Origin: Frigoribacterium sp. PhB116
GTDB lineage: Bacteria > Actinomycetota > Actinomycetes > Actinomycetales > Microbacteriaceae
Reading direction: 5' to 3'
Length of the DNA stretch: 64,000 bases
Assembly: GCF_004364285.1 (NCBI RefSeq)
Contig: NZ_SOBE01000001.1
Span: forward strand, 620,001-684,000
The notes beneath the pieces are model-generated. The model did not search any database. It worked only from the letters and a program-made list of their open reading frames with translations, and was not told the DNA's origin. Below are positions 14,582 to 58,613 of the stretch, piece after piece; position 1 is the stretch's first letter; each line of letters opens with the position of its first letter. Both the position numbers and the translations under genes were made by a program.

Positions 14582-14587
14582 TAGGGT
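14582..14587 (+). promoter_or_regulatory. Leaderless -10 (TAGGGT) of the GST-like gene
   Basis: TAGGGT is followed by 7 nt and the ATG at 14595, so transcription probably starts at the start codon. It lies just after the dnaE2 stop. Confidence 0.55.
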
Positions 14588-14594
14588 GGCGAGC

Positions 14595-15617
14595 ATGAGC
14601 GACGAGCAGCAGGCGAAGGGCACGTACGTCGAGCCCGGCCAGGAGTACACCCGCGACACGAACTACATCGAGGACAGGATCACGCGCGACGCCGTCGACG
14701 GCTGGCCCGTCGAGGCCGGCCGCTACCGGCTCGTCGCCGCCCGCGCCTGCCCCTGGGCCAACCGCACCGTCATCTCGCGCCGCCTCCTCGGCCTCGAGGG
14801 AGCGATCTCGCTCGGCCTGCCCGGGCCGACCCACGACGCCCGCAGCTGGACCTTCGACCTCGACCCGGACGGCCGCGACCCCGTGCTCGGCATCGAGCGC
14901 CTGCAGGAGGCGTTCCTCGCCCGCACCCCCGACTACGCCCGCGGCATCACCGTGCCCGCGATCGTCGACGTGCCGACCGGCAAGGTGGTCACCAACGACT
15001 TCCCGCAGATCACCCTCGACTTCGCCACCGAGTGGACCGAGCACCACCGCGAGGGTGCGCCCGAGCTCTACCCCGAGCACCTGCGCGCCGAGATCGACGA
15101 GGTGAACGCCGTCGTGTTCCGCGACGTGAACAACGGCGTGTACCGCGCCGGGTTCGCCGGCTCGCAGAAGAGCTACGAGCGGGCGTACCGCACGCTCTTC
15201 GAGCGCCTCGACTGGCTGTCCGAGCGCCTCGCGGGGCAGCGCTTCCTCGTGGGTGACACCATCACCGAGGCGGACATCCGCCTCTTCACCACCCTCGCCC
15301 GCTTCGACGCCGTCTACCACGGCCACTTCAAGTGCAACCGCTCGAAGCTGGCAGAGATGCCGGTGCTCTGGGCCTACGCCCGCGACCTGTTCCAGACGCC
15401 CGGCTTCGGCGACACGATCGACTTCGCCCAGATCAAGGCGCACTACTACGTGGTGCACAGCGACATCAACCCGACGGGGATCGTCCCGGCCGGCCCCGAC
15501 CCGTCGGGCTGGCTGACCGAGCACGGCCGTGAGGAGCTCGGCGGGCGGCCGTTCGGCGACGGCACTCCGCCGGCCGCGCCTCCCGAGGGCGAGCGGGTGC
15601 CGCCGCTCGTCGCGTGA
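14595..15617 (+). CDS. Glutathionyl-hydroquinone reductase-like protein (GST Xi class)
   Basis: Xi-class glutathione transferases reduce glutathionyl-hydroquinones through an N-terminal catalytic cysteine. This 340-residue protein carries the class motif ACPWANR with Cys52, a thioredoxin-like first half (VPAIVD, VVTNDFPQI) and an all-alpha C-terminal domain with the typical FLVGDTITEADIRLFTTLARFD, YHGHFKCNRSKL and HYYVVHSDINPTGIVP blocks. Actinobacteria use mycothiol rather than glutathione, so the physiological thiol is probably mycothiol; this is inference. The following dksA-like gene overlaps its stop by 4 bp. Confidence 0.88.
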   Translation: MSDEQQAKGTYVEPGQEYTRDTNYIEDRITRDAVDGWPVEAGRYRLVAARACPWANRTVISRRLLGLEGAISLGLPGPTHDARSWTFDLDPDGRDPVLGIERLQEAFLARTPDYARGITVPAIVDVPTGKVVTNDFPQITLDFATEWTEHHREGAPELYPEHLRAEIDEVNAVVFRDVNNGVYRAGFAGSQKSYERAYRTLFERLDWLSERLAGQRFLVGDTITEADIRLFTTLARFDAVYHGHFKCNRSKLAEMPVLWAYARDLFQTPGFGDTIDFAQIKAHYYVVHSDINPTGIVPAGPDPSGWLTEHGREELGGRPFGDGTPPAAPPEGERVPPLVA

Positions 15618-15949
15618 CCGACCCGACCGGGCAGCTACGCCGGACCCGTGACGAGGCGCTCGCGCTGGCCGAGCGACTCCTGCGCGACATGGAGGCGGTG
15701 GCCGAGGCCCGCGAGGGAGCGAACGTCGACGACGAACACGACCCCGAGGGCTCGACCATCGCCTACGAACGGTCGCAGCTCGACGCGGTCCGTCGTTCAG
15801 CCCTCGAGCGCGCCGCCGACGCCGAGGCGGCGCTCGGCCGGGTGGCCGACGGCACCTTCGGCCGCTGCGAGCGCTGCGCCGCGCGGATCGGCGAGGCGCG
15901 GCTCGAGGCCCGGCCCACCGCCCGCCTCTGCATCGACTGCGCTCGCTGA
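15614..15949 (+). CDS. DksA/TraR-type C4 zinc-finger protein
   Basis: This 111-residue protein has an N-terminal helical hairpin region followed by a C-terminal four-cysteine zinc finger, CERC with 17 residues to CIDC. This is the TraR/DksA finger. DksA-like proteins bind RNA polymerase in the secondary channel and alter initiation, but actinobacterial small versions such as RbpA-unrelated TraR/DksA proteins are poorly characterised. The GTG start overlaps the stop of the GST-like gene in a GTGA motif, so translation is coupled. The acidic coiled-coil tip cannot be assigned with certainty. Confidence 0.8.
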   Translation: MTDPTGQLRRTRDEALALAERLLRDMEAVAEAREGANVDDEHDPEGSTIAYERSQLDAVRRSALERAADAEAALGRVADGTFGRCERCAARIGEARLEARPTARLCIDCAR

Positions 15950-16077
15950 CCCTGCCCTGCGGGGCACCCCCGCGGCACTTCCGCCGCGAGCAGCCGCGAC
16001 GTAGGCTGCCGACACCACGGCGACGATGCCGGGCCCGACTGCCCTGCCGACGCCTCCGCTCGATGACGAGGGGCGAC

Positions 16078-17430
16078 ATGGCAGCGGCCCGACCCGACCC
16101 GCCGACCGCTCGTGCGTCCCGCGGGGCCGCGCGCCGGCTCCTGCTCGCGGCGTCCTGGAAGCGGGCCGCCGACCACCGTGTCGACCCCGACGCGCTCCCC
16201 CTGCTCGAGCTGCCCGACGACGACCTGGCCTCGTGGCGCCGCGAGCACCCGCTCGCGCTGCTGCTGCCGGTCGTCCAGCGCCTCCTGATCGACGACGTCG
16301 AGGGCAGCGGCCTGCTGGTGGCCGTCGGCGACGAACGCGGTCGCCTGCTCTGGGTCGAGGGCGACCGCGAGGCACGGCGCCGGGCCGAGTCGATGCTCTT
16401 CGTCGCCGGGGCCGGCTGGGCCGAGTCGAGGGTCGGCACCTCCGCGCCCGGCACCGCCCTCGAGCTCGACCGCGGCGTGCAGGTCAGGGGGCCCGAGCAC
16501 TTCTCCCACCTCGTCCAGGAGTGGAGCTGCACCGCCGTCCCCGTGCACGACCCCGCCGACGGACGCCTCATCGGCGTGGTCGACATCACCGGCGACGACC
16601 GTGCCGCCGGCGAGCAGACGCTGCCGCTGCTGCGCGCGACGGTCGCCGCGATGGAGGCGGAGCTCGCCCTCTCGAGGACGCGGTCCCCACGCCGCGTCGG
16701 CACCGGCGCAGGCGCGGCCCCCGGCGCCGCCTCCAGCCCCAGGACCGGCTCCCGCCCCGCCCGACGGCCTCGGGCCCACCAGACCGGTCCGGCGACGCCG
16801 GCACCCCCGCGGCTCGACGTGCTCGGCCGTGACGAGGCGGTGCTCCACGCCGGCTGGACCGCCACGACGCTGAGCGCCCGGCACTCCGAGCTCCTCCTCC
16901 TGCTCGCCGCTCGGCCGGAGGGGTGGTCGGCCGAGGCGCTGGCCGACGCGATCTGGGGCGAGCGCGGCGCGGTCGGCACCCTGCGGCCCGAGCTCGTCCG
17001 GCTCCGCCACGTGCTCGAGGCGGTCGCCCCCTCGCTCGTGCCGACGTCGCGGCCGTACCGGCTGCCGACGGGACTGGCCACGGACGCCGACGAGGTCGTG
17101 CACCTGCTCGACCGCGGCGCGCACCGCGCCGCCCTGCGCGCCGCGACGGGCCCGCTCCTGCCGGGCTCGTCGGCCCCGGGCGTCGAGAGCCTCCGCGCCG
17201 AGCTCGCGCGACACCTCGGGGAGTCCCTGCGCACCTCCGGCTCGGTCGACGTGCTGCTGCAGTGGGTGGCCACCGCCCAGGGCGCCGACGACGAGCCGGC
17301 CCGCCGCGAGCTGCTGCGGCTGCTGCCGCCCCGGTCGCCCCGCCGGGCGGGTCTCGTCGCGGGCGCCGTCGGGGGTACCGCAGCGGATCGAGACGCGCAA
17401 CGGGACGCAACGTCGGCCGACCTACCCTGA
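16078..17430 (+). CDS. GAF-domain transcriptional regulator with SARP/OmpR-like winged helix
   Basis: This 450-residue regulator has an N-terminal sensory part like that of AcoR-type activators, with a GAF domain at about residues 60-195 (DERGRLLWVEGD, LVQEWSCTAVPVHDP). A Pro/Arg/Ala-rich linker follows. The C-terminal half has a winged-helix segment LSARHSELLLLLAARPEGWS and ALADAIWG, as in SARP/BTAD regulators, instead of the AAA+ and Fis domains of true AcoR. ATG 16078 was chosen because GAGGGG lies 5 nt upstream. It sits 54 nt before an aldehyde dehydrogenase and DUF779 gene on the same strand, and probably controls them in response to an alcohol or aldehyde. Confidence 0.75.
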   Translation: MAAARPDPPTARASRGAARRLLLAASWKRAADHRVDPDALPLLELPDDDLASWRREHPLALLLPVVQRLLIDDVEGSGLLVAVGDERGRLLWVEGDREARRRAESMLFVAGAGWAESRVGTSAPGTALELDRGVQVRGPEHFSHLVQEWSCTAVPVHDPADGRLIGVVDITGDDRAAGEQTLPLLRATVAAMEAELALSRTRSPRRVGTGAGAAPGAASSPRTGSRPARRPRAHQTGPATPAPPRLDVLGRDEAVLHAGWTATTLSARHSELLLLLAARPEGWSAEALADAIWGERGAVGTLRPELVRLRHVLEAVAPSLVPTSRPYRLPTGLATDADEVVHLLDRGAHRAALRAATGPLLPGSSAPGVESLRAELARHLGESLRTSGSVDVLLQWVATAQGADDEPARRELLRLLPPRSPRRAGLVAGAVGGTAADRDAQRDATSADLP

Positions 17431-17484
17431 CCCCACGGGCCGCGCGATCCGTGGCCTCCGACACCGTCGTCGAAAGGGACAGCC

Positions 17485-19025
<1,541 letters not shown>

Positions 19026-19026
<1 letters not shown>

Positions 19027-19478
19027 TGGAGACCGCAGCGAAGGAGGTTCGGGTCGTCCCGGCCGATCCTGCCCCGGCCCCCGAAGCGGTCGCCCTGCCC
19101 TCCCGGGTCGACGTCTCCGCGGAGGCGGCGGCATTCCTCGTCGACCTCACGGCCGAGCACGGCCCCCTGATGTTCCACCAGTCGGGCGGCTGCTGCGACG
19201 GCTCGTCGCCGATGTGCTATCCGGTGGGCTTCTTCCGGGTCGGCGCGGTCGACGTCCACCTCGGCGACCTGCACGTCGACGGTCTCGACCCGATCGAGGT
19301 CTACATGTCGCGCAGCCAGTTCGAGTACTGGAAGTGGACGCACCTCACGATCGACGTCGTCGCGGGCCGGGGCGCCGGCTTCTCGGTCGAGTCGCCCGAG
19401 GGGCGCCGGTTCCTGATCCGGTCGCGCATGCTCGACGACGCCGAGCAGGCAGCCCTCGGGCTAGTCCCGGGGAGCTGA
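19026..19478 (+). CDS. DUF779 family protein
   Basis: This 150-residue protein has the DUF779 core, including MFHQSGGCCDGSSPMC with a Cys-Cys pair and third Cys that could bind metal, a YMSRSQFEYW block and a C-terminal FSVESPEGRRFLIRSR strand region. Its function is not established, but the family is repeatedly encoded next to aldehyde dehydrogenases as here. The ATG overlaps the preceding TGA (TGATG), so translation is coupled. An accessory role in aldehyde metabolism is inferred from this arrangement only. Confidence 0.85.
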
Positions 19479-19497
19479 CCGAGAGGACCCCGCAGGT

Positions 19498-20172
19498 CTA
19501 CGGCGTCTGCGCCGCTGCCGTCCCGCCCTCGGCGGGCGGCAGGGCGTAGACGCCGTGGCCGGTCCGCACGATGACGCCCTGCCGCGCCAGGACCGAGAGG
19601 GTCGAGAGCACGCTCGAGCGGCGGTAGCCCGGGAGCGCCTCGACGATCCCGGTGGTGCGCAGGGCCCCGGCGCGGAGCACCTCGGGCAGCCGCTCCGCGA
19701 GCGAGTCACCCGACGAGCTGCCCGCGGGGGCCTGCGGCCCGTCGTCGGCCGAGGCAGGGTCGACCCCGGCCTCGGCGACGTACTCGGCACGGGCGTGCGC
19801 CAGCCCCTCCGCGGTGACCCGCGTCGTGGCGCCGTCCGGCCCCGCGGCCTGGGCGTACGGGCCGAGCGTCAGCGACCGGCCGACCCGGCCGTGGACCGCC
19901 GACGCGCTGGTGCCCTGGTGCTCGGCGATCTCCGGGTAGGAGGCGCCGCCCAGCAGCAGGACCGCCTCCCCCTCGAGAGCCAGCCACTGCCCCAGGCTCG
20001 CGATCTCCCAGCCCGCCGCCGTGACGGCGGAGCCCCAGACCTCGATGTCGTCGCCGTGCTCGGTCGTAAGGGCGTGCAGGTCGGCCAGCAGGTCGACGAG
20101 GCGCCCCCGGGCGTCGTCGACGATCTCGGCCGTGAACTGCGGCGGGCGTCGAAGTTTGATCGGTCGTGACAT
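19498..20172 (-). CDS. Uncharacterised winged-helix protein
   Basis: The family of this 224-residue protein is not recognised. Two DNA-binding-like regions are visible. The first is a helix-turn-helix-like block around residues 88-112 ([23 protein letters not shown]). The second is a C-terminal winged-helix candidate ([28 protein letters not shown]). The N-terminal part is helical and Leu-rich. The ATG at 20172 was chosen because TAGTCT lies 7 nt before it, the leaderless pattern seen elsewhere here. It is divergent from rplU with 88 bp between starts, so it may influence that ribosomal operon, but no evidence beyond position supports this. Confidence 0.65.
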
Positions 20173-20179
20173 CTGTGAA

Positions 20180-20185
20180 AGACTA
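20180..20185 (-). promoter_or_regulatory. Leaderless -10 (TAGTCT) of the winged-helix gene
   Basis: On the minus strand TAGTCT lies 7 nt before the ATG at 20172, without a Shine-Dalgarno sequence. It sits inside the rplU upstream region. Confidence 0.5.
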
Positions 20186-20260
20186 TCCAAGTTGCCCGAG
20201 CGGCAGCGCGACGTCGTCCGGCGATCCGGACGTCACACCCCAATCTTCCCAGGAGTTCCC

Positions 20261-20572
20261 ATGGCATTCGCAATCGTGCGCGCCGGCGGCCGTCAGGAGA
20301 AGGTCGAGGTCGGGACGATCCTGACCGTCGACCGCCTCAAGGCCTCGGCATCCGACACCGTCTCGTTCGTCCCCGTCCTGCACGTCGACGGCGACACGAT
20401 CCTCACCGGCGACGACCTCGCGAAGGTCACCGTCGAGGGCGAGGTCCTGAACGACCTCCGCGGCCCGAAGATCGTCATCCAGAACTACAAGAACAAGACC
20501 GGCTACAAGCGTCGCATGGGCTTCCGTGCCGACCTGACCCGCGTCAAGATCACCTCGATCACCACCAAGTAG
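20261..20572 (+). CDS. rplU: 50S ribosomal protein L21
   Basis: L21 binds 23S rRNA in the large subunit. At 103 residues it is full length, with the expected [15 protein letters not shown] start, a central [11 protein letters not shown] loop and the C-terminal rRNA-binding [14 protein letters not shown] signature. The ATG has AGGAG 5 nt upstream. The 88-bp leader contains a short hairpin, GTCCGG/CCGGAC with a CGAT loop at 20216-20231, which could serve regulation. rpmA follows after 38 nt. Unusually, the upstream gene is a divergent winged-helix gene rather than an RNase E/G gene. Confidence 0.98.
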
Positions 20573-20610
20573 CACCGCGACGCCGAAGACATCCCAGGAG
20601 CTGACACCAC

Positions 20611-20880
20611 ATGGCACACAAAAAGGGCGCATCGTCCACTCGTAACGGCCGCGACTCGAACGCACAGCGCCTCGGCGTGAAGCGCTTCGGCGGCCAGGTC
20701 GTCCTCGCCGGCGAGATCATCGTCCGCCAGCGCGGCACCCACTTCCACCCCGGCGCCAACGTCGGTCGTGGCGGTGACGACACCCTGTTCGCCCTCGCCC
20801 CCGGCGCGGTCGAGTTCGGCAACAAGGGCGGCCGCAAGGTCGTCAACATCGTCGCGAGCCAGGTCGCGGTCGACGCGTAG
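20611..20880 (+). CDS. rpmA: 50S ribosomal protein L27
   Basis: L27 reaches the peptidyl transferase centre with its N-terminus. At 89 residues it is complete and starts [20 protein letters not shown], the standard mature-type N-terminus without the cleaved Firmicute extension. The ATG has AGGAGCTG 8 nt upstream. It forms an operon with rplU and ends before a double hairpin. obgE, which normally follows rpmA, is not present here. Confidence 0.98.
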
Positions 20881-20884
20881 CACC

Positions 20885-20947
20885 CGGTCCCGCGCACGCG
20901 CGGGACCGTCCGACGGCGGTCGCCCCCTCACGGGGGCGGCCGCCGTC
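20885..20947 (+). terminator. Tandem hairpins ending the rplU-rpmA operon
   Basis: CGGTCCCGCGC (20885-20895) pairs with 20898-20908, and GACGGCGGTCGCCCCC (20912-20927) pairs with 20932-20947 around a TCAC loop with one G-U pair. Two strong stems follow the rpmA stop without a U-tract. Confidence 0.8.
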
Positions 20948-21015
20948 GTCGTGTCCCCCCGCCTTGTACCCTCCCGGTCCAGGGCGCTCCCGGTCCCCCG
21001 GCGTAGACGGGACGG

Positions 21016-22191: not shown

Positions 22192-22213
22192 CCGACCGCA
22201 CCATCCGCTCACC

Positions 22214-23374: not shown

Positions 23375-23402
23375 GGACGCGCGGCCCGCACGGCCGCCTG
23401 AC

Positions 23403-27650: not shown

Positions 27651-27656
27651 AGCCTA
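27651..27656 (-). promoter_or_regulatory. Leaderless -10 (TAGGCT) of the MpaB-like gene
   Basis: TAGGCT on the minus strand lies 6 nt before the GTG at 27644, with no Shine-Dalgarno. Confidence 0.6.
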
Positions 27657-27691: not shown

Positions 27692-27697
27692 TAGGCT
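27692..27697 (+). promoter_or_regulatory. Leaderless -10 (TAGGCT) of the Nudix gene
   Basis: TAGGCT lies 6 nt before the ATG at 27704. The same hexamer and spacing occur on the opposite strand 35 bp away for the divergent MpaB-like gene. Confidence 0.6.
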
Positions 27698-33059: not shown

Positions 33060-33065
33060 ACGGTA
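33060..33065 (-). promoter_or_regulatory. Leaderless -10 (TACCGT) of the SDR gene
   Basis: TACCGT on the minus strand lies 7 nt before the ATG at 33052, with no Shine-Dalgarno. Confidence 0.55.
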
Positions 33066-35784: not shown

Positions 35785-35790
35785 ACGCTA
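35785..35790 (-). promoter_or_regulatory. Leaderless -10 (TAGCGT) of truB
   Basis: TAGCGT on the minus strand is 6 nt before the GTG at 35778. The upstream gene ends only 24 bp away, so truB has its own promoter despite the tight spacing. Confidence 0.55.
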
Positions 35791-36383: not shown

Positions 36384-36389
36384 ACCCTA
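36384..36389 (-). promoter_or_regulatory. Leaderless -10 (TAGGGT) of the P-loop gene
   Basis: TAGGGT on the minus strand lies 6 nt before the ATG at 36377. It faces the mutY -10 (36422-36427) across 32 bp, so the two promoters share the same DNA. Confidence 0.6.
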
Positions 36390-36421: not shown

Positions 36422-36427
36422 TAGGAT
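36422..36427 (+). promoter_or_regulatory. Leaderless -10 (TAGGAT) of mutY
   Basis: TAGGAT lies 6 nt before the GTG at 36434, with no Shine-Dalgarno. Confidence 0.6.
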
Positions 36428-44173: not shown

Positions 44174-44179
44174 AGCATA
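44174..44179 (-). promoter_or_regulatory. Leaderless -10 (TATGCT) of proS
   Basis: TATGCT on the minus strand lies 6 nt before the GTG at 44167. This gives an essential housekeeping gene a leaderless mRNA. Confidence 0.6.
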
Positions 44180-48467: not shown

Positions 48468-49535
48468 TCAGGGAGTCTGCACGGAGGCGAAGACGGCATC
48501 GATGATCGTCTCGGGGGCCACGTCGTCCGCCGTGGCCTCGTAGCCGAGGATGACGCGGTGCCGCAGCACGCCGTGCCGCAGGTGCTTCACGTCTTCCGGG
48601 ATGACGTAGTCTCGGCCGTGCAGCAGGGCCAGGGCACGCGCGGCTTGCATGAACGCGATGCTGGCACGCGGGCTCGCGCCGAACTGGACGTAGTCGGCGA
48701 GGCTGCCGGGGATGTACTGCTGCGGGTGCCGCGTCACGTAGATCAGCTGGACGATGTAGTTGACGATCGACGCGTCGACGTACACGCGCTTGGCCAGTTC
48801 TTGCAGCCACACGACGTCCTCGAGCGAGACGCCGGTCGGCGCGTCGACCTGCTGCTCGTCGTAGACGCCGGCCTCGATGCGCCGGATGACCTCGGCCTCC
48901 TCGGCGGGCGACGGGTAGTCGAGCACCTCTTTCAGGAGGAACCGGTCGAGCTGCGCCTCGGGCAGCTGGTACGTGCCCTCTTGCTCGATCGGGTTCTGCG
49001 TGGCCAGCACGAGGAAGGGCCGGGGCAGCGGGTAGACGGTGCCGCCGATGCTCGTCTGCCTCTCTTGCATCGCCTCGAGCATCGCGCTCTGGGTCTTCGC
49101 GCTCGAGCGGTTGATCTCGTCGAGCAGCACGAAGTTCGAGTGCACGGGGCCGAGCTGCGTCACGAAGGTAGACTTCTGCGCGTCGTAGATCTGGGTGCCG
49201 GTGATGTCGCTCGGCAGCAGGTCGGGCGTGCACTGGATGCGGGTGAAGCTCGCCTCGACGGACTGCGCGAGCGTCGCCGCCGCGGTCGTCTTGGCCAGCC
49301 CGGGGACGCTCTCGAGCAACACGTGCCCGCCCGTGATCAGCGCGATCAGCAGGGTGTCGCGGAGGCCGGTCTGGCCCACCACCTTGCGCGAGAACGCGTG
49401 CGACACGGCATCGACGACACCGGCGGCACGCTCGAGGTCGGCGGGGCTGATCGGGGTGCCGACCGCGGCGGGAGGCGGGGGCGTCGTCGAGGTGTCGGTC
49501 ACCCGGCCCACTGTAACCGAGGCGTCCGACGTCAC
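48468..49535 (-). CDS. MoxR-family AAA+ ATPase
   Basis: MoxR ATPases are chaperone-like motors that mature partner protein complexes. The 355-residue protein has Walker A as GHVLLESVPGLAKTT (variant GxxxxxKT), Walker B VLLDEINRSSAKTQSAMLEAM, sensor LVLATQNPIEQEGTYQLPEAQLDRF and a C-terminal lid. Three in-frame GTGs are possible. The one at 49535 is preferred because it overlaps the metI stop (GTGA) and has GAGGAGGG 10 nt upstream; GTG 49502 has no good Shine-Dalgarno. This makes it translationally coupled to the methionine transporter gene. Confidence 0.9.
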   Translation of the reverse strand: MTSDASVTVGRVTDTSTTPPPPAAVGTPISPADLERAAGVVDAVSHAFSRKVVGQTGLRDTLLIALITGGHVLLESVPGLAKTTAAATLAQSVEASFTRIQCTPDLLPSDITGTQIYDAQKSTFVTQLGPVHSNFVLLDEINRSSAKTQSAMLEAMQERQTSIGGTVYPLPRPFLVLATQNPIEQEGTYQLPEAQLDRFLLKEVLDYPSPAEEAEVIRRIEAGVYDEQQVDAPTGVSLEDVVWLQELAKRVYVDASIVNYIVQLIYVTRHPQQYIPGSLADYVQFGASPRASIAFMQAARALALLHGRDYVIPEDVKHLRHGVLRHRVILGYEATADDVAPETIIDAVFASVQTP

Positions 49536-50191: not shown

Positions 50192-50193
50192 GG

Positions 50194-51273: not shown

Positions 51274-51295
51274 GGTCTCCTCGTCACGGTCGGAA

Positions 51296-51336
51296 GGGCC
51301 CGACCAGCGCGCCGTCGTGGCGAGCGGGTCGGGCCC
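51296..51336 (-). terminator. Hairpin between metQ and metN
   Basis: GGGCCCGACC (51296-51305) pairs perfectly with GGTCGGGCCC (51327-51336). Placed between the binding-protein gene and the ATPase gene, it can stabilise metQ mRNA or reduce read-through, giving excess binding protein. Confidence 0.65.
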
Positions 51337-51354
51337 GGGCGGGGGCAGGCGGCG

Positions 51355-52272
51355 TCAGCCGTTCTGCTCCACGAGCTCCTTCGTCTGCTCGAGCGACTCG
51401 CGCAGGTCGGCGACGGGCACCTTCGTGGTGAGGGCCGTGCCGCCCGAGTTCTCGACGACGCCGTCGGTGACGGCCTTCGTGTCCTGGTAGATCTGGACGA
51501 GCTTCTGGTACGTCTCGTTGTCCGCGTCGCCCTCACGAGCGGCGAAGACGTTGACGTAGGGCAGCGACGCCGGGTCGGAGGCGTCGTCCTGGGCGATGAT
51601 CGTGTCGGGCGAGAGCCCCGCCTTGGTGGCGTACTCGTTGTTGATGATCGCGCCGTCGAAGTCGGGCAGCGACGTCGCGGCGAGGTCGGCCGCGACGGGC
51701 GAGACCGTGACCGTCGACGCCTCGGTGTCGATGTCGTCGAGGCCGGAGAAGATGTCGCCGCCGTCCTTGAGCTCGATCAGGCCGTTCGACTGCAGCACGA
51801 GGAGCGAGCGGGCGAGGTTGCTCGCGTCGTCGGGCACGGCGACGGTGTCGCCCTTGCTGAACTGGTCGAGCGAGGTGTGCTCCTGCGAGTACAGGGGCAG
51901 CGGGTAGATCGCCGTCGAGCCGATCGGCACGAGGTCGGCGTCGGCCGACACGTCGTACTGGGCCAGGTAGACGATGTGCTGGAACTGGTTGAGGTCGAGC
52001 TCGTCCTCGGTCAGCGCCGGGTTCGGCTGCTCGTAGTTGGCGAAGTCGACGATCTCGACGTCGATGCCCTCGTCGGCGGCGGCCTGCGTGAAGGTGGCCC
52101 AGTACGGGTCGCTCGCGCCGACGACCCCGATGCGCACGGCGTCGCCGCCCCGGTTCGCGACGGCGATGCCGACGCCCACGGCGGCGAGGACGACGACGAC
52201 CGCCACGACGATCGCGATCAGCCGTCCGCGCTTCTTCTTCGGGGCCTCGATCAGGGGTGTTGCCTCGGACAT
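51355..52272 (-). CDS. metQ: Methionine-binding protein with N-terminal membrane anchor
   Basis: This 305-residue NlpA/MetQ-family protein delivers methionine to MetNI. The mature domain shows the family blocks VRIGVVGASDPYW, VEIVDFANYEQPNPALTEDELDLNQFQH, PLPLYSQEHTSLDQFSKGDTVAVPDD and NGLIELKD. MetQ is normally a lipoprotein, but here the N-terminus has a Lys/Arg-rich stretch followed by a hydrophobic segment (residues about 18-38, ending AVANRGG) with no lipobox Cys. It is therefore probably an uncleaved membrane anchor. AGAGG lies upstream of ATG. It heads the met operon. Confidence 0.92.
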   Translation of the reverse strand: MSEATPLIEAPKKKRGRLIAIVVAVVVVLAAVGVGIAVANRGGDAVRIGVVGASDPYWATFTQAAADEGIDVEIVDFANYEQPNPALTEDELDLNQFQHIVYLAQYDVSADADLVPIGSTAIYPLPLYSQEHTSLDQFSKGDTVAVPDDASNLARSLLVLQSNGLIELKDGGDIFSGLDDIDTEASTVTVSPVAADLAATSLPDFDGAIINNEYATKAGLSPDTIIAQDDASDPASLPYVNVFAAREGDADNETYQKLVQIYQDTKAVTDGVVENSGGTALTTKVPVADLRESLEQTKELVEQNG

Positions 52273-52497
52273 GACGTTCCTCTCAGACGGTGCGACGCAC
52301 GTCGCCGGCTGCTGCTGCCGGCACCACGACCGTGCGTCCCTCCATCGTGACCGGCGGGGCGGGCCGGGTCACAATCGGCGCGTCACACGGCGACACACCT
52401 GCTCCGCGAGCATGCACGAACACTGATCGGGAGGCCGGGAGGCGGGGGCACCAGCGTCGGCCGGACACGTCACCGGCGGCAGGCAGGCTGCGACGCG
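52273..52497 (-). promoter_or_regulatory. metQ upstream region, no riboswitch recognised
   Basis: This 225-bp stretch between metQ and the ispG terminator should hold the metQ promoter. It contains several short inverted repeats (for example TGCTC-CGC-GAGCA near 52400) and a short in-frame ATG that could begin a 20-residue peptide ending at the metQ Shine-Dalgarno. No SAM or T-box riboswitch, and no clear promoter, can be supported. Confidence 0.3.
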
Positions 52498-52538
52498 GAG
52501 GAGGCGCGGTGCGGCCGGAGCCTGCACCGCGCCTCCTC
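52498..52538 (-). terminator. Terminator of ispG built from the GGAGGCGCGG element
   Basis: GAGGAGGCGCGGTGC (52498-52512) pairs perfectly over 15 bp with 52524-52538 around an 11-nt loop, 36 nt after the ispG stop. Both arms carry the 10-mer, as in the proS terminator. Confidence 0.8.
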
Positions 52539-52574
52539 GGGGCGGTCGGGTCGGTGACCGACCCGCGATCAGCC

Positions 52575-53723
52575 TCAGACCGTGAGGACTTGGGGCGAGC
52601 CGACCTCGCCCGGGGGCATCTCGGCCGCGAGGCGGTTGGCCTCGTCGATCAGCGTCTGGACGATCTCGGACTCGGGCACGGTCTTGATGACCTCGCCCTT
52701 GACGAAGATCTGGCCCTTGCCGTTGCCCGACGCGACGCCGAGGTCGGCCTCGCGGGCCTCGCCCGGGCCGTTCACGACGCAGCCCATGACCGCCACGCGG
52801 AGCGGGACCGTCATGCCCTCGAGGCCGTCGGTGACGTCGTTCGCGAGCTTGTACACGTCGACCTGCGCACGACCGCAGCTGGGGCAGCTGACGATCTCGA
52901 GCTTGCGCTCGCGCAGGTTCAGCGACTGGAGGATCTGCAGGCCGACCTTGACCTCCTGCGCAGGAGGCGCGCTGAGGCTCACGCGGATGGTGTCGCCGAT
53001 GCCCTCGCCGAGCAGGATGCCGAAGGCCGTGGCCGACTTGATGGTGCCCTGGAACTCGGGGCCGGCCTCGGTCACGCCGAGGTGCAGGGGCCAGTCGCCA
53101 CGCTCCGCGAGCTGCCGGTAGGCCTTGACCATGATGACCGGGTCGTTGTGCTTGACCGAGATCTTGAAGTCGTGGAAGTCGTGCTCCTCGAAGAGGGACG
53201 CCTCCCACACCGCGGACTCGACGAGCGCCTCGGGCGTCGCCTTGCCGTACTTCTGCAGGATGCTGGGCTCGAGCGACCCGGCGTTCACGCCGATGCGGAT
53301 CGAGACGCCCGCGGCCTTGGCGGCGGCGGCGATCTTGCCGACCTGGTCGTCGAACTTGCGGATGTTGCCGGGGTTGACGCGCACCGCGGCGCAGCCGGCG
53401 TCGATCGCCTGGAACACGTAGTTCGGCTGGAAGTGGATGTCGGCGATCACCGGGATCTGGCTCTTCTTCGCGATGATCGGCAGCGTCTCCGCGTCGTCGC
53501 GAGTGGGCACGGCGACGCGCACGATGTCGCAGCCCGAGGCGGTGAGCTCGGCGATCTGCTGAAGCGTCGCATTGATGTTCGTGGTGGGCGTGGTGGTCAT
53601 CGACTGGACGCTGACGGGAGCGTCGCCTCCGACGAGGACCTTGCCGACCTTGATCTGCCGCGACTTGCGTCGCGGGGCAAGGGTTTCGGGGACCTTCGGC
53701 ATTCCGAGATTGACTGCAGGCAC
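52575..53723 (-). CDS. ispG: 4-hydroxy-3-methylbut-2-enyl diphosphate synthase
   Basis: IspG (GcpE) catalyses the penultimate step of the MEP pathway, converting the cyclic diphosphate to HMBPP with a 4Fe-4S cluster. The 382-residue protein shows the TIM-barrel start [22 protein letters not shown], and the C-terminal cluster ligands in [13 protein letters not shown] and [20 protein letters not shown]. It is full length. The GTG start has TACGAT 7 nt upstream. It precedes no gene closely; the terminator is 36 nt after the stop. It lies with rseP and dxr, the usual actinobacterial trio. Confidence 0.97.
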
Positions 53724-53730
53724 GTCGTCG

Positions 53731-53736
53731 ATCGTA
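53731..53736 (-). promoter_or_regulatory. Leaderless -10 (TACGAT) of ispG
   Basis: TACGAT on the minus strand lies 7 nt before the GTG at 53723, with no Shine-Dalgarno. Confidence 0.55.
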
Positions 53737-53824
53737 GACCCGTGCGCTGGGCGCGCGATGTCGGAGGCGAGGACGCCCAGCGGGCCAGCAGGTCAGGACG
53801 TCCGCGGGCCGGCTGCCGAGCGGG

Positions 53825-55156
53825 TCAGCGGATCAGCGAGATCGGGTTCACGATGTCGGCGTAGGCGAGCAGCAGCCCCATGCCGCCGAGGACGATCACG
53901 ACCGCGAACGTGAGCGGGATGACCTTCGCCGTGTCGACGGGCCCCGGGTCGGGGCGGCGGAAGAGCTTGGCGAAGCCACGACGGATCGCCTCGATCAGCG
54001 CGCCCGCGACGTGGCCGCCGTCGAGGGGCATCAGCGGCACGAGGTTGAAGACGAACAGGGCGACGTTGAGGCTGGCGAGCAGGCTCACGAGGAACGCGGC
54101 CCGGTCGATGAACGGCACGGTGTCGAGGCTGACCACCTCGCCCGCCATCCGGCCGACCCCGACGACGCTCACGGGGCCGTTCGCGTCGCGCTCTCCCCCG
54201 CCGAACGCGGCCTGGGCGACGGCGACCATGCGCTGCGGCAGGTGCACGATGACGTTCGCGACGTGCCCGATGTTCGTGCCGACGGTCGGCAGCACGGCCG
54301 TGACCGGCTGCTGCACCGTCACCGTCGCGAAGCCGATGCCGACGAAGCCGACCTCCTGGGTGACCGGGGCGCCGTCGTCGCCCACGACGGGCACGCCCGC
54401 CGAGTCGATCACCTGGCGTGCGGAGAGCGCCGGGGTGACCTCGAGCGTCTGCTCGCTCCCGTCTCGCTCGACCACGACGCTGAGGGTCTGGTCGGGAGCC
54501 GCGCGGAACGCGCTCGTCACCTGGTCGCCGTCCGTCATCGCCACGCCGTCGATCGACACGATGCGGTCGCCGTTCTCCATGCCGGCCGCGAAGGCGGGCG
54601 CCGCCGTGGCGTCGGCCGGGCACTCGGTCTCGGTCGAGCCGGCGGGCAGCACGCACTGGTTGACGAGGCCGACGGTGGTGCTCGACTGCGCCGTGCCGAA
54701 GCCGCAGAGCAAGATCGTGAAGAGCACGATCGCGATGAGCAGGTTCATCGTCGGCCCGCCGAGCATGATGATGATCCGCTTGTAGACGGGCAGCCGGTAG
54801 AAGGTGCGGTGCTCGTCGCCCTGGTCGATCGTGTCGGCGCTGGCGGTGCGCGCGTCCTGGACGAGGGTCTGGAAGAAGCCCGTGCTCGCCGTCCGGCCCC
54901 TCTGGCCCTCCCGCGCCGGGGGGTACATGCCCGACATCGAGATGTAGCCGCCGAGCGGCAGCGCCTTGACGCCGTACTCGGTCTCGCCCCGGCGGCGGGA
55001 GAAGACCGTCGGCCCGAAGCCGATCATGTACTGCCCGACCTTGACGCCGAACTTCTTGGCCGGCACGAGGTGCCCGATCTCGTGCAGCGCGATCGAGACG
55101 GCGAGCCCGATGACGATCACGACGATGCCGAGCAGGTAGAGCAGGACGGTTTCCAC
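53825..55156 (-). CDS. rseP: Site-2 intramembrane metalloprotease (RseP family)
   Basis: RseP-type proteases cut anti-sigma factors within the membrane. The 443-residue protein has the zinc motif HEIGH near residue 23 in the first span, a PDZ-type domain in the middle (ADFAAGMENGDRIVSIDG-like, here AAPAFAAGMENGDRIVSIDG), and the second active-site motif MPLDGGHV with catalytic Asp in the C-terminal spans. MLGGPTMNLLIAIVLF follows the family pattern. The GTG start at 55156 has TACCCT 6 nt upstream. The anti-sigma substrate is not in the window. It lies between dxr and ispG. Confidence 0.93.
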   Translation of the reverse strand: METVLLYLLGIVVIVIGLAVSIALHEIGHLVPAKKFGVKVGQYMIGFGPTVFSRRRGETEYGVKALPLGGYISMSGMYPPAREGQRGRTASTGFFQTLVQDARTASADTIDQGDEHRTFYRLPVYKRIIIMLGGPTMNLLIAIVLFTILLCGFGTAQSSTTVGLVNQCVLPAGSTETECPADATAAPAFAAGMENGDRIVSIDGVAMTDGDQVTSAFRAAPDQTLSVVVERDGSEQTLEVTPALSARQVIDSAGVPVVGDDGAPVTQEVGFVGIGFATVTVQQPVTAVLPTVGTNIGHVANVIVHLPQRMVAVAQAAFGGGERDANGPVSVVGVGRMAGEVVSLDTVPFIDRAAFLVSLLASLNVALFVFNLVPLMPLDGGHVAGALIEAIRRGFAKLFRRPDPGPVDTAKVIPLTFAVVIVLGGMGLLLAYADIVNPISLIR

Positions 55157-55162
55157 CGGGCA

Positions 55163-55168
55163 AGGGTA
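55163..55168 (-). promoter_or_regulatory. Leaderless -10 (TACCCT) of rseP
   Basis: TACCCT on the minus strand lies 6 nt before the GTG at 55156. The 129-bp gap to dxr also holds one copy of CCGCGCCTCC (55230-55239) without a paired copy. Confidence 0.5.
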
Positions 55169-55285
55169 GCCGTCCGAGACGGGGAGCCGGCCCCGCACCG
55201 GCCATGGCGACGCTGTGAGGGGTCGGGGTCCGCGCCTCCTCGGCCCGGCCGTGTGCCCGACGAACTGACGGCGGGACGGTGGCCG

Positions 55286-56365
55286 CTAGCGGCGGGCGAG
55301 CAGCGCGTCGGCAGCCTCGCGGGCCCAGCGCTCGGCCTCGAGCACGCCTTCGAGGGTGCTCGGCCCCGCTGTGTGCCGGTCGACGACCTCGCGCACGGTG
55401 TCGAGGATGCCCAGGTAGCCGACCCTGCCGTCGTGGAACGCGTGGACGGCCTGCTCGTTCGCCGCGTTGAACACGGCGGGCCAGGTGGCGCCCGCCCGGC
55501 CGACCTGCTTCGCCAGCAGCACGGACGGGAACGCCTCGTCGTCGAGCGGCTCGAAGGTCCAGGTGGAGGCGGTGGTCCAGTCGAGGGGCACGCCCACGCC
55601 CGGCACGCGGTCGGGCCAGGCCATCCCGAGCGAGATCGGCAGTCGCATGTCGGGCGGCGACGCCTGGGCGATCGTGGAGCCGTCGACGAACTCGACCATC
55701 GAGTGCACGATCGACTGCGGGTGGACCGTCACGTCGATGTGGTCGTAGTCGACGTCGAAGAGCAGGTGCGCCTCGATCACCTCGAGCCCCTTGTTGACGA
55801 GCGTCGACGAGTTCGTCGTGACGACGCGGCCCATGTCCCACGTGGGGTGCGCGAGGGCCTCGGCGGGGGTGACGTCGGCGAGGGAGGCGCGCGTCCGGCC
55901 GCGGAAGGGCCCGCCGGAGGCGGTGAGCACGAGGCGACGGACCTCGCCGCGGTCGCCGGAGCGGAGCGCCTGCGCGATGGCGGAGTGCTCGGAGTCGACC
56001 GGCACGATCTGCCCCGGTGCCGCGCGCTCGCGCACGAGGTCGCCGCCGACGATCAGGCTCTCCTTGTTGGCCAGAGCCAGCGTGGCGCCGGAGTCGAGCA
56101 CGGCGAGCGTCGGCGCGAGGCCCACGCTGCCCGTGATGCCGTTGACGACGACGTCGGCCTCGACGTCGCGGACGAGCGCCACCGACTCGTCGGTGCCGAG
56201 CGCGGTGTGCTCGACGCCGAAGCGGGCTGCCTGCTCGGCCAGCAGGGCGGCGTTCGAGCCGGCCGACAGCCCGACGACGGTGAACAGGTCGGGGTGGGCG
56301 GCGACCACGTCGAGCGCCTGCACGCCGATGGAGCCGGTGGAGCCGAGGAGGATGACGCGACGCAT
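55286..56365 (-). CDS. dxr: 1-deoxy-D-xylulose 5-phosphate reductoisomerase
   Basis: Dxr makes 2-C-methyl-D-erythritol 4-phosphate with NADPH, the committed step of the MEP pathway and the fosmidomycin target. The 359-residue protein has the Rossmann motif [14 protein letters not shown] at the start, [12 protein letters not shown], the active-site [21 protein letters not shown] and [28 protein letters not shown]. It is slightly short at the C-terminus but complete. ATG 56365 has TAGGCT 6 nt upstream. Confidence 0.97.
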
Positions 56366-56371
56366 GCGGTC

Positions 56372-56377
56372 AGCCTA
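56372..56377 (-). promoter_or_regulatory. Leaderless -10 (TAGGCT) of dxr
   Basis: TAGGCT on the minus strand lies 6 nt before the ATG at 56365, the same hexamer and spacing as at the Nudix and MpaB-like genes. Confidence 0.6.
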
Positions 56378-56409
56378 GGGGCGCGCCCGGCCCGGTGCGG
56401 AGGTACCGC

Positions 56410-57396
56410 TCAGGCCACGGCGAGGACGTCGATGACGAAGACGAGCGTGTCGCCGCCCTCGATGCCCGCGCTCGGCTGTCCGCCGTCGCCGTAGCCCTCG
56501 GCGGGCGGGACGACGACGAGCACCTGCGAGCCGACGGTCTGGCCGATCATCGCCGCGGCGAAGCCCGGGACGACCTGCGCGGTCGAGAACGGGGTCGGGG
56601 TGCCCTCGCCCCAGCTCTCGTCGAAGACCTTCCCGTCGCGCCAGTTGACGCCCTGGTACTGGACCGTCACGTTCGCGGGGTCGGGGACGACCTCGCCGTC
56701 GCCCTTCTTGAGCACCTCGACCTGCAGCTCGGCCGGCGGGTCGGAGTCGGGGATCGTCACGGTCGGACGGCCGTCGTCGGCGAGGCTCACCTCGGGGAAG
56801 CCCGGCTGAGCGGGCTGGTCGACGCCGGTCGCGCGCGTCGGCACGATCGAGAACGTGTCGACCACGATCACGGCCGCCGCGTTCGGCGGCGCGGTGCCCG
56901 TCTGGGCCGGCTGCATGTCTGCCGCGCTGGCGACCGTCACCGATCGCGAGCCGGCCTGGTTGCAGAGCAGCGCGGCTTCCAGCCCGGGCACGTAGTAGTC
57001 GGCGCTGATGGTGAGCTGCTCGCCGCTGCCGCGCTCGTAGCCGGCCGAGCTCAGCTCGGCGCCGGTCGTGGCGTCGAAGACCGTCACGGCCACCTGCACG
57101 ACGTCGCCCGACTTCGTCTCCGGCCCGGTGCCCTGCGAGACCACGGCCCGCTGGCTCGTCGCCGCGCCCAGGGGGCCGGAGAGCGCGATGGTCGGCTTCT
57201 GCCCCACCTCGCCCGACACCTCGACCGAGTCCGCCTCGGCGCCGCCGCCGAGGCAGGCGGTCGCGGCAGGGCTCGCGCCGGGCGTGCTGGCCGACGGCAC
57301 GGGCGCCGCGTCGTCCGTGCAGCCGACCAGGGCGACCGCGAGGAGCGGCACCCCGACCAGGCCGAGGAGGCGCGCGCGGCGACCGATGACGGTCAC
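56410..57396 (-). CDS. Lipoprotein with a degenerate and an intact FKBP domain
   Basis: This 328-residue protein has a lipoprotein signal (RRARLLGLVGVPLLAVALVGCTDD, lipobox Cys about residue 25). Residues about 75-185 form an FKBP-like unit (VVSQGTGPETKSGDVVQVAVTVFD, YYVPGLEAALLC) that lacks the aromatic active-site residues. Residues about 215-328 form a canonical FKBP domain with VTVQYQGVNWRDGKVFDESW, VVPGFAAAMIGQTVGSQVLVVVPPAEGYG and LVFVIDVL. FKBP domains isomerise X-Pro bonds. The GTG start lies 2 nt after the stop of a paralogous FKBP gene; the shared linker sequence shows recent duplication. Confidence 0.88.
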   Translation of the reverse strand: MTVIGRRARLLGLVGVPLLAVALVGCTDDAAPVPSASTPGASPAATACLGGGAEADSVEVSGEVGQKPTIALSGPLGAATSQRAVVSQGTGPETKSGDVVQVAVTVFDATTGAELSSAGYERGSGEQLTISADYYVPGLEAALLCNQAGSRSVTVASAADMQPAQTGTAPPNAAAVIVVDTFSIVPTRATGVDQPAQPGFPEVSLADDGRPTVTIPDSDPPAELQVEVLKKGDGEVVPDPANVTVQYQGVNWRDGKVFDESWGEGTPTPFSTAQVVPGFAAAMIGQTVGSQVLVVVPPAEGYGDGGQPSAGIEGGDTLVFVIDVLAVA

Positions 57397-57398
57397 GG

Positions 57399-57962
57399 TC
57401 AGTTCGCGGCCAGGATGTCGATCACGAAGACGAGCGTGTCGTCGCCCGCGATGCCGGCCTGCGGAGCGCCCGCCTCGCCGTAGCCCTCGGCCGGCGGGAT
57501 GACGACGACGGTCTGCGAGCCGACGGTCTGGCCGACGATGCCCGCTGCGAAGCCAGGGATGACCTGGCCGGTGCCGAACGTGGTCGGCTCGCCGCGCTTC
57601 CAGCTCTCGTCGAAGACCGTGCCGTCCTTCCAGAGCGAGCCCTGGTACTGGACGGTGACCTGGGCGCCGTCCTCGACGACGGGGCCGTCGCCCTTGATCA
57701 GCGTCTCGACCTGGAGCTCGGTCGGCGCCTCCGTGCCCGGCAGGGTGACGGTCGGGCGGCCGTCGGAGTCGAGCTCGACCGTCGGGAAGCCGGCCTGCGG
57801 CTCCTGCGCCTCGCCGCTGGCACGGGTGGGCACGTCGGAGGGAGCGCTCGACGACGAGGACGGGGCGGAGGTCGCGGTGTCGCCGGTGCTGGCCTCGGAG
57901 GCACAGGAGGCGAGGCCCAGCACGAGGACGGGGACGGCGAGCAGGGAGAGGGAGCGGCGCAT
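57399..57962 (-). CDS. FKBP-type peptidyl-prolyl isomerase lipoprotein
   Basis: This 187-residue lipoprotein has a signal peptide with lipobox LASC (Cys20), a Ser/Thr-rich linker, and one FKBP domain with VTVQYQGSLWKDGTVFDESW, VIPGFAAGIVGQTVGSQTVVVIPPAEGYG and LVFVIDIL. It should act outside the membrane on folding of secreted proteins. The ATG has GAGAG upstream. Its domain and preceding linker (GFPTVELDSDGRPTVTLPG) closely match those of the downstream double-domain paralogue. Confidence 0.92.
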   Translation of the reverse strand: MRRSLSLLAVPVLVLGLASCASEASTGDTATSAPSSSSSAPSDVPTRASGEAQEPQAGFPTVELDSDGRPTVTLPGTEAPTELQVETLIKGDGPVVEDGAQVTVQYQGSLWKDGTVFDESWKRGEPTTFGTGQVIPGFAAGIVGQTVGSQTVVVIPPAEGYGEAGAPQAGIAGDDTLVFVIDILAAN

Positions 57963-57986
57963 GGGAGTCTCTCGATCGAGGGGCGG

Positions 57987-58018
57987 GGACGGCGCGGAGC
58001 CGGGACGGCACGGAGCCG
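57987..58018. repeat. 16-bp tandem duplication upstream of the FKBP gene
   Basis: GGACGGCGCGGAGCCG (57987-58002) is followed directly by GGACGGCACGGAGCCG (58003-58018), one mismatch. It sits 25-56 bp upstream of the FKBP start and may duplicate a regulatory site. Confidence 0.6.
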
Positions 58019-58102
58019 CCCGGGTCGCGAGGCGCCGGGTCAGGTCATTCTGCCCCACGCTGCCGCAGGGCCCGCTGAACGGCCGAGGCACGTCGACCCG
58101 GA

Positions 58103-58582
58103 TCAGGAGGCGGCGGCCACCAGGGTCGTGGGCTCGTGGCCGACGGGGAACGCGACCGACGCGGCGATGAAGCACTTGCGGGCGGCCTCGGCGTGCAGCG
58201 TGCCCGCGAGCTCGACCATCGACGCGTCCGCCACGGTGACGACGGGCCGCAGGGTGGCCGAGGTGAAGCGGCCTCCCCCGTCGGCGGTCTGCGCCATGGA
58301 GCCCTCGGCCGAGTCCCGGTAGGCGACCACGACCACGCCCGCGGACGCGGCGACGTGCAGGTAGCTGAGGAGGTGGCACTCGGCCAGGGCGGCGAGGAGC
58401 AGCTCCTCCGGGTTCCAGCGATCGGCGTCGCCGTGGAACGTGCGGTCGGCAGACCCCTGGATGTCGTGGAGCTTGCCGGCGGCGGAGACGGTGGCGTCGC
58501 GACCGTAGCTGCGGTACGACGTCGTGCCGGCTCCCCGGTCTCCCGTCCAGGCGAGGTCGACGGCGTAGTGGTGGTCGAGCAC
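58103..58582 (-). CDS. OsmC/Ohr-family protein
   Basis: OsmC-family proteins reduce organic peroxides with a pair of cysteines. The 159-residue protein has the fold pattern with NPEELLLAALAECHLLSYLHVA, where the Cys is replaced by Glu-Cys-His context (AECH), and a C-terminal Cys in ARKCFIAASV. Both candidate catalytic Cys are thus present. It resembles the YhfA/OsmC-like subgroup rather than Ohr. The GTG start has GAGGAG 6 nt upstream. It is divergent from the asparaginase gene. Confidence 0.88.
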   Translation of the reverse strand: MLDHHYAVDLAWTGDRGAGTTSYRSYGRDATVSAAGKLHDIQGSADRTFHGDADRWNPEELLLAALAECHLLSYLHVAASAGVVVVAYRDSAEGSMAQTADGGGRFTSATLRPVVTVADASMVELAGTLHAEAARKCFIAASVAFPVGHEPTTLVAAAS

Positions 58583-58607
58583 GGGATCCTCCTCGGCGGG
58601 GCGTCGA

Positions 58608-58613
58608 TACACT
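58608..58613 (+). promoter_or_regulatory. Leaderless -10 (TACACT) of the asparaginase gene
   Basis: TACACT lies 7 nt before the ATG at 58621, with no Shine-Dalgarno. Confidence 0.6.

What the first reader, a model, noticed from the sequence alone, without database searches (positions are those of the whole stretch)
14582..58613. Widespread leaderless promoters: TAnnnT exactly 6-7 nt before the start codon
At thirteen genes a TAnnnT hexamer lies 6 or 7 nt before the start codon with no Shine-Dalgarno between. They are the GST-like gene (14582), winged-helix gene (20180), MpaB-like (27651), Nudix (27692), SDR (33060), truB (35785), P-loop protein (36384), mutY (36422), proS (44174), ispG (53731), rseP (55163), dxr (56372) and asparaginase (58608). 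SRAP, App1-like and GH15 have related but weaker boxes. This spacing places the transcription start on the start codon. Leaderless mRNAs are common in actinobacteria; notable here are the strict spacing and the use in essential genes such as proS, ispG and dxr. The pattern also fixes start codons.
Basis: partly seen in the sequence, partly recalled or inferred. Interest (0 to 1): 0.7.

Follow-up and report, generated by a model that had tools for sequence, protein, structure and literature searches.

The report
Leaderless-gene promoters across a Frigoribacterium genome
In this bacterium about one gene in seven seems to have its promoter pressed right against its start codon, so that the message begins with the first codon; this is a known habit of its phylum, but here it also produces tiny back-to-back promoters that appear to serve two genes at once.

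Summary
All 13 TAnnnT boxes lie exactly 6 (8 genes) or 7 nt (5 genes) before an in-frame ATG/GTG; a 14th (MoxR-like, start 49502) was missed. The genome is a Frigoribacterium (Microbacteriaceae). In 800 kb sampled elsewhere in it, 104 of 692 genes (15%) have such a box, against about 3.4 expected from other spacings; shuffles give 3.65 against 105 of 699. The excess exists only at ATG/GTG, is strongest at divergent genes, comes without Shine-Dalgarno or -35, and is kept in 167 of 167 genus orthologs. This is the leaderless-promoter class already described for Actinobacteria (Zheng 2011; Cortes 2013; Shell 2015): a new member of a known kind. No 5' end was mapped.
Following it led outside the window to an architecture my searches did not find in print. 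At pabB/pabC-like genes, 4.6 kb to the left, a 17-bp sequence (CATAnnnTnAnnnTATG) carries both start codons and both -10 boxes, each box beginning inside the other gene's start codon. Nested forms occur at this pair in 14 of 28 other Microbacteriaceae genera first examined (but were not seen in the other family genomes checked), and the geometry recurs at three unrelated gene pairs in two other families.

The parts
14582..14587 (+). TAGGGT, gap 7, ATG 14595, GST-like
   Evidence: not covered by the genus comparison
20180..20185 (-). TAGTCT, gap 7, ATG 20172, AbiEi-like/winged-helix (its only Pfam hit is below cut-off)
   Evidence: 10 of 10 distinct genus orthologs
27651..27656 (-). TAGGCT, gap 6, GTG 27644, MpaB-like
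   Evidence: 12 of 12
27692..27697 (+). TAGGCT, gap 6, ATG 27704, Nudix; head-to-head with MpaB, starts 60 bp apart
   Evidence: (12 of 12)
33060..33065 (-). TACCGT, gap 7, ATG 33052, NAD(P)H-binding/DUF2867 ('SDR')
   Evidence: 12 of 12; the start codon shifts along the protein in relatives and the box shifts with it
35785..35790 (-). TAGCGT, gap 6, GTG 35778, truB
   Evidence: 13 of 13
36384..36389 (-). TAGGGT, gap 6, ATG 36377, P-loop protein
   Evidence: 12 of 12; no Pfam hit, NCBIfam kinase hits far below cut-off
36422..36427 (+). TAGGAT, gap 6, GTG 36434, mutY-like; head-to-head with the P-loop gene, starts 57 bp apart
   Evidence: (12 of 12)
44174..44179 (-). TATGCT, gap 6, GTG 44167, proS
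   Evidence: 13 of 13 genus, 34 of 43 family
49510..49515 (-). TACAGT, gap 7, GTG 49502, MoxR-type AAA; not in the finding
   Evidence: 14 of 14 genus; 0 of 3 family
53731..53736 (-). TACGAT, gap 7, GTG 53723, ispG (GcpE)
   Evidence: 15 of 15 genus, 44 of 53 family, 0 of 39 beyond
55163..55168 (-). TACCCT, gap 6, GTG 55156, rseP-like M50 protease
   Evidence: 14 of 14 genus, 41 of 43 family
56372..56377 (-). TAGGCT, gap 6, ATG 56365, dxr
   Evidence: 14 of 14 genus, 20 of 39 family
58608..58613 (+). TACACT, gap 7, ATG 58621, asparaginase II family
   Evidence: 14 of 14 genus, 4 of 10 family
1230..1235 (+). GAGAAT, gap 7, ATG 1243, SRAP: weaker box
1998..2003 (+). GAGGAT, gap 6, ATG 2010, APP1: weaker box
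6167..6172 (+). CAGGAT, gap 6, ATG 6179, GH15: weaker box

Best explanation
The boxes are -10 elements, most likely of the housekeeping sigma factor. They sit so close to the start codon that transcription begins on its A or G, giving leaderless mRNAs whose 5' AUG/GUG is taken directly by the ribosome. Shown by sequence: the box, its spacing, its restriction to ATG/GTG, the missing Shine-Dalgarno and -35, the concentration at divergent genes, the conservation. Inferred: the transcription start, the sigma factor, and 5'-terminal start-codon recognition. Because such a promoter needs only about 12 bp, divergent leaderless genes can be packed until the two promoters interlock, as in the 17-bp pabB/pabC element outside the window.
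For: Gap profile without any gene calling: in 800 kb TAnnnT before ATG counts 57 (gap 6) and 27 (gap 7), before GTG 35 and 20, background about 11.5 per gap for ATG+GTG together; TTG 4 and 4, CTG 9 and 5, no peak. -1 is C in 59% of 94 gap-6 and 71% of 49 gap-7 sites. 53 of 190 divergent genes carry it against 11 of 206 tightly co-directional ones, p = 5e-10. SD-like words in 13 of 104 leaderless-type genes (control position 19 of 104) against 292 of 578 others (control 93). TTG at a spacer of 16-19 bp from the box in 0 of 104. Letters: excess at gaps 6+7 about 114 for TAnnnT, 30 for CAnnnT, 22 for GAnnnT, 4-5 for TTnnnT, TAnnnA and TAnnnG, about 1 for AAnnnT and negative for TGnnnT, TCnnnT, TAnnnC, so A at position 2 and T at position 6 are nearly required. 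Sense TAnnnT 50 against antisense 9 upstream of 119 leadered genes. 167 of 167 distinct genus orthologs keep it; the gap only switches between 6 and 7 (23 cases), the start only between ATG and GTG (12 cases); box T, A, T 100% identical against about 50% at 20-40 bp upstream of the box. RbpA and CarD-domain families present.
Against: No RNA 5' ends. Some of these genes could also be transcribed from a second upstream promoter. GAnnnT counts carry a coding-frame periodicity, so that excess is soft. In the ortholog test any in-frame ATG/GTG between -90 and +60 nt of the expected start could score, so each ortholog had several chances; counts at other gaps from the same search were few in the genus apart from a recurring second in-frame start 21 nt further on in ispG. 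Orthologs without the box outside the genus do not always show an SD (dxr 5 of 23 and ispG 14 of 39 beyond the family; dxr 4 of 19 in the family), so loss of the box is not always a visible switch to SD.
Confidence: 0.94

Rival explanations
1. The box is an RNA-level translation signal in a 5' leader, not a promoter.
For: Fixed distance to the start codon.
Against: Rare at tightly co-directional genes (11 of 206 against 53 of 190 divergent), found sense-oriented upstream of leadered genes, conserved roughly 50-70 nt before nusA in the genus together with a GGAGG.
Confidence: 0.03
2. Chance or composition artefact of a 73% G+C genome, or of choosing start codons to fit the box.
For: Start codons are ambiguous in high-G+C genomes, and searched a zone of -90 to +60 nt for a fitting start.
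Against: The peak appears without gene calls and not at TTG/CTG; other gaps searched in the same way give 0-9 (gaps 8 and 9: 7 and 6; the rest 0-5); shuffles give 3.65 against 105; 167 of 167 conserved.
Confidence: 0.01
3. A dedicated alternative sigma factor regulon using TAnnnT.
For: No -35 motif.
Against: Same box upstream of leadered genes including nusA; the window genes are functionally mixed; about 15% of genes.
Confidence: 0.02

Closest known systems
TA-led (leaderless) genes of Actinobacteria and Deinococcus-Thermus, Zheng et al. 2011 (PMC3160421; passages seen)
   Same: TANNNT core whose middle carries little information in high-G+C groups, first T about 12 nt before the start codon, more than 20% of genes in Actinobacteria, concluded to be leaderless
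   Different: Here one genus is followed gene by gene, with 167 ortholog comparisons, the ATG/GTG against TTG/CTG contrast, and head-to-head architecture
Leaderless transcriptome of Mycobacterium (Cortes 2013 PMC3898074; Shell 2015 PMC4633059; passages seen)
   Same: TANNNT without -35 consensus; ATG or GTG at the 5' end necessary and sufficient, TTG and CTG ineffective
   Different: There 5' ends and ribosomes were mapped; here only sequence
-10 region adjacent to ORFs in Deinococcus-Thermus (PMC12340547; search listing, abstract and outline seen)
   Same: -10 box placed directly before the ORF, leaderless mRNA
   Different: Other phylum
Bidirectional promoters, divergent TSSs 7-25 bp apart, most often 18 bp (PMC10268837 and PMC12825309, passages seen; the original Warman 2021 paper is not held)
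   Same: Head-to-head starts so close that binding of one polymerase should prevent the other
   Different: Predicted starts at pabB/pabC are 12 or 13 bp apart, the boxes do not share their -7/-11 bases but reach into the opposite start codon, and both products are predicted leaderless mRNAs. Predicted, not mapped. Divergent TSSs 10-23 bp apart are reported in E. coli, so the distance alone is not new.

Membership tests
Actinobacterial leaderless (TA-led) promoters | TANNNT with first T about 12 nt before the start codon | tested here: met
   14 of 56 window genes, 104 of 692 sample genes; shuffles
Actinobacterial leaderless (TA-led) promoters | start codon ATG or GTG only | tested here: met
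   no peak at TTG/CTG
Actinobacterial leaderless (TA-led) promoters | no Shine-Dalgarno | tested here: met
   13 of 104 against 292 of 578
Actinobacterial leaderless (TA-led) promoters | mRNA 5' end at the start codon | not testable with these tools
   needs 5'-end mapping
Canonical -35/-10 sigma-70 promoter | TTGACA-like -35 at 16-19 bp from the -10 | tested here: not met
   TTG in 0 of 104 at spacers 16-19; DNA upstream of the box differs entirely among MpaB/Nudix orthologs (start distance 39-169 bp) while boxes stay
Bidirectional promoters (TSSs 7-25 bp apart) | divergent starts within 7-25 bp: the two pairs inside the window | tested here: not met
   57 and 60 bp between start codons
Bidirectional promoters (TSSs 7-25 bp apart) | divergent starts within 7-25 bp: pabB/pabC element | tested here: inconclusive
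   12-13 bp between start codons, but TSSs not mapped

The most novel reading that the evidence does not exclude
Microbacteriaceae use a nested bidirectional leaderless promoter: 17 bp (or 18 bp with both gaps 7) that is at once the whole intergenic region, two -10 boxes and two start codons, CATAnnnTnAnnnTATG. The +1 A of each mRNA pairs with the -12 T of the opposite promoter, so a polymerase starting one gene blocks the other, tying two steps of p-aminobenzoate synthesis to one DNA element. The same geometry occurs at unrelated gene pairs in other families. In part of the genus the pabC-side start has become a conserved 7-codon leaderless ORF (MSGxPTR or MFGAPTR) whose stop overlaps the next start (ATGA), suggesting leaderless loading followed by translational coupling.
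Probability: 0.6. Interest if true: 0.65.

Novelty: new member of a known kind. Interest (0 to 1): 0.4.

Why it matters
For this family, a search for 'leaderless' with 'Microbacteriaceae' listed 3 papers, none on this subject by title; the box gives a rule for choosing start codons and for finding promoters from sequence alone. The nested element, if both starts are confirmed, would be a very compact two-gene control region, and offers a natural test of how a -10 element without -35 is recognised and how two polymerases compete for the same 12 bp.

Tried and rejected
A general excess of leaderless short ORFs: 11 intergenic cases at gaps 6/7 against about 7.5 expected from control gaps, not convincing. 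Excess pairing of leaderless genes: 9 head-to-head pairs against about 8 expected if leaderless status is independent (my estimate: about 100 divergent regions, 28% of divergent genes leaderless), so no sign of a preference for pairing. A -35 or extended -10 (TGn): not found.

Limits of the pabB/pabC element. In an order-wide draw, 0 of 29 further loci near pabB hits carry the nested motif; 4 of the 29 are other Microbacteriaceae, and some of the 29 may be trpE rather than pabB (29 of the 66 other genomes with a hit were laid as loci). In the order-wide pattern search, 18 of 22 other Microbacteriaceae genomes lack the exact 12-bp form anywhere; of the 4 with a match, 3 were read and are not pab and G143 was not read. 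These 22 genomes belong to only five genera. So the element is scattered in the family.

Order-wide, most matches to the 17-bp pattern look one-sided or due to chance: my tally of the table is 92 matches in 65 genomes against 30 for the reversed control pattern in 26, of 297 genomes; the listing of places was cut. Of 50 loci read outside the genus (30 given by the tool, 20 that I chose for G+C-rich letters), 7 have frames of at least 100 codons on both sides, and 3 of these 7 have Pfam-supported genes on both sides.

Literature on the nested element: 'bidirectional promoter + leaderless + divergent' (3 papers listed), 'bidirectional promoter + mycobacteri + transcription start sites + divergent + overlapping promoters' (12 of 18 listed) and 'pabB + pabC + divergent + leaderless' (10 of 14 listed) gave no title on it; I saw listings only, and only openly licensed papers are held.
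Full report
What was checked. The 13 boxes were read directly at their coordinates and all are there, 8 at gap 6 and 5 at gap 7. A codon-bias gene caller trained on 800 kb of the same genome was then used without reference to the box; 14 of 56 window genes, the 13 plus a MoxR-type gene at 49502, have TAnnnT at gap 6 or 7 before an in-frame ATG/GTG near the coding start. Gene names were confirmed by Pfam, except the P-loop gene, which has only weak NCBIfam hits, and the winged-helix gene, whose only Pfam hit is below its cut-off.

Organism. The ispG protein is 98% identical to that of Frigoribacterium faeni AS3.2, next best 95%. So: genus Frigoribacterium, family Microbacteriaceae, 3.37 Mb, 73% G+C in the window. 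Sixteen genomes of the genus are held, this one included.

Genome-scale test. In 40 stretches (800 kb) outside the window, the number of TAnnnT before ATG/GTG is about 11.5 per gap at control gaps and jumps to 92 at gap 6 and 47 at gap 7; TTG and CTG show no jump. By gene, 104 of 692 (15.0%) carry it, while control gaps give 0 to 5 counts each, mean 1.7; the shuffle test, on 699 genes, gives 105 against a mean of 3.65. CAnnnT and GAnnnT add some more; A at position 2 and T at position 6 are nearly required, as expected of a -10 element.

What kind of signal. The box favours genes that must have their own promoter: 28% of divergent genes, 17% with 21-100 bp to a co-directional neighbour, 10% with more than 100 bp, 5% with 20 bp or less. 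Shine-Dalgarno-like words are at background in these genes and frequent in the rest. There is no -35 hexamer. C is preferred at -1 and G at the second base after the box. The same hexamer is enriched on the sense strand upstream of leadered genes, 50 against 9, and nusA shows it before a leader with a GGAGG. RbpA (two matches) and the CarD domain family (two matches) are present; their role at -35-poor promoters is recalled knowledge.

Conservation. In genus orthologs of 13 window genes (GST not covered; 14 of 15 other genomes fetched as stretches, G009 only at ispG), 167 of 167 distinct upstream regions keep the box at gap 6 or 7, with 23 switches between 6 and 7 and 12 between ATG and GTG. 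The SDR-like and asparaginase starts move along the protein and the box moves with them. In the rest of the family proS keeps it in 34 of 43, ispG 44 of 53, rseP 41 of 43, dxr 20 of 39, P-loop 4 of 4, mutY 6 of 10, truB 3 of 10, asparaginase 4 of 10, moxR 0 of 3, SDR-like 0 of 1; beyond the family proS 14 of 27, rseP 6 of 32, dxr 1 of 24, ispG 0 of 39. At 20-40 bp upstream of the box identity in the genus is only about 50%. The rate of such sites over background is 12.9 per 100 kb in the own sample, 27.7 in loci of other Microbacteriaceae and 11.9 in other Micrococcales and neighbours; the latter two sets lie around ispG, a leaderless-rich region, so rates are not strictly comparable.

Packing. 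Two head-to-head pairs lie in the window, MpaB/Nudix (starts 60 bp apart) and P-loop/mutY (57 bp). In 13 genus loci the first pair varies from 39 to 169 bp, 39 bp being commonest (8 of 13), with both boxes kept in all distinct orthologs. At 39 bp the place of any -35 falls in the opposite promoter, a natural argument that no -35 is needed. Across the fetched loci, head-to-head leaderless pairs number 9 (own sample and window), 21 (genus, mostly orthologs of the two window pairs), 25 (family) and 4 (beyond), against 0, 0, 1 and 0 in three control gap pairs together.

The nested element. At G000:C1:615379-615395 the starts of a pabB-like gene (Chorismate_bind well above cut-off; TIGR00553 score 294.5, below its cut-off 328.4) and a pabC-like gene (Aminotran_4 above cut-off; aminodeoxychorismate-lyase models far below theirs) are 12 bp apart. 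CATACCCTGAGTGTATG contains both ATGs and both boxes. In 16 genus genomes: 6 have it at 12 bp; 2 at 13 bp with both gaps 7; 7 keep an 18-bp form whose pabC-side ATG opens a 7-codon ORF (MSGxPTR or MFGAPTR) with a TGA that overlaps a further ATG as ATGA, that ATG being the pabC-like start in 6 and the start of a second, 5-codon ORF again joined to pabC by ATGA in one (L230); and 1 has two separate leaderless promoters 69 bp apart. One of the 7 (L235) failed the automatic frame check but shows the motif. In the family, 48 of 60 genomes gave a hit and 28 new loci were laid, one per genus; 21 of the 28 have a divergent pabC-like gene; 14 carry the nested element (11 at 12 bp, 3 at 13 bp), 2 the symmetric TAnnnTA form at 18-19 bp, 1 a pair at 65 bp. 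In one of the 14 (L282) the automatic pabC frame check failed, probably because the match runs past the start; its ORF is 258 codons. Four other family loci in an order-wide draw lack it, and at least 21 of 22 family genomes in the pattern draw lack its exact 12-bp form at pab apart from one unread match counted as unknown. The free positions vary while the T, A, T positions hold, but the search pattern fixes those letters, so this is not an independent test. Nested pairs with Pfam-supported genes on both sides also occur at two M20 peptidases (L248), LysR/PF03601 (L244) and LacI/FGE-sulfatase (L240), in two other families; four further loci with long frames on both sides had Pfam support on one side only.

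Verdict. The finding is right and well supported, but its kind is known: Zheng et al. predicted it for Actinobacteria in 2011 (passages), and mycobacterial work mapped it and showed the ATG/GTG rule (passages). The new material is the interlocked divergent form, which needs 5'-end mapping.

Noticed in passing
L017:15379-15395 (G000:C1:615379-615395): 17-bp nested bidirectional leaderless element between pabB-like and pabC-like genes; nested forms in 14 of 28 further genera of the family, absent from other family genomes checked.
   Followed up: yes
L229-L235, between pabB and pabC: Conserved 7-codon ORF (MSGxPTR or MFGAPTR) starting at the pabC-side leaderless ATG, its TGA overlapping a further ATG (pabC in 6 of 7; in L230 a second 5-codon ORF comes between).
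   Followed up: partly
window 42313 (-), nusA leader: TACCGT box 6 nt before an ATG opening a 23-codon ORF that runs into the nusA start, with a GGAGG before nusA; the leader is conserved in the genus. Either a leaderless upstream ORF or simply an mRNA starting with AUG.
   Followed up: partly
box-relative positions -3 and -2 (promoter -15/-14): About 90% identity among genus orthologs though I saw no consensus base, while the base next to the box is only 63% identical; unexplained.
   Followed up: no
L073-L101 against L023-L072: Other Micrococcales and neighbours use gaps 6 and 7 about equally (41 and 45), Microbacteriaceae prefer 6 (220 and 77).
   Followed up: no
G000:C1:250078-250401 and 363226-363543: Two RbpA-family matches in one genome.
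   Followed up: no
L179, L030, L037: Head-to-head leaderless pairs 23 bp apart; in L030 and L037 the two boxes share a single TA step, AGCCTACGGT.
   Followed up: no
window 3473-4783 (+): HipA-family gene.
   Followed up: no
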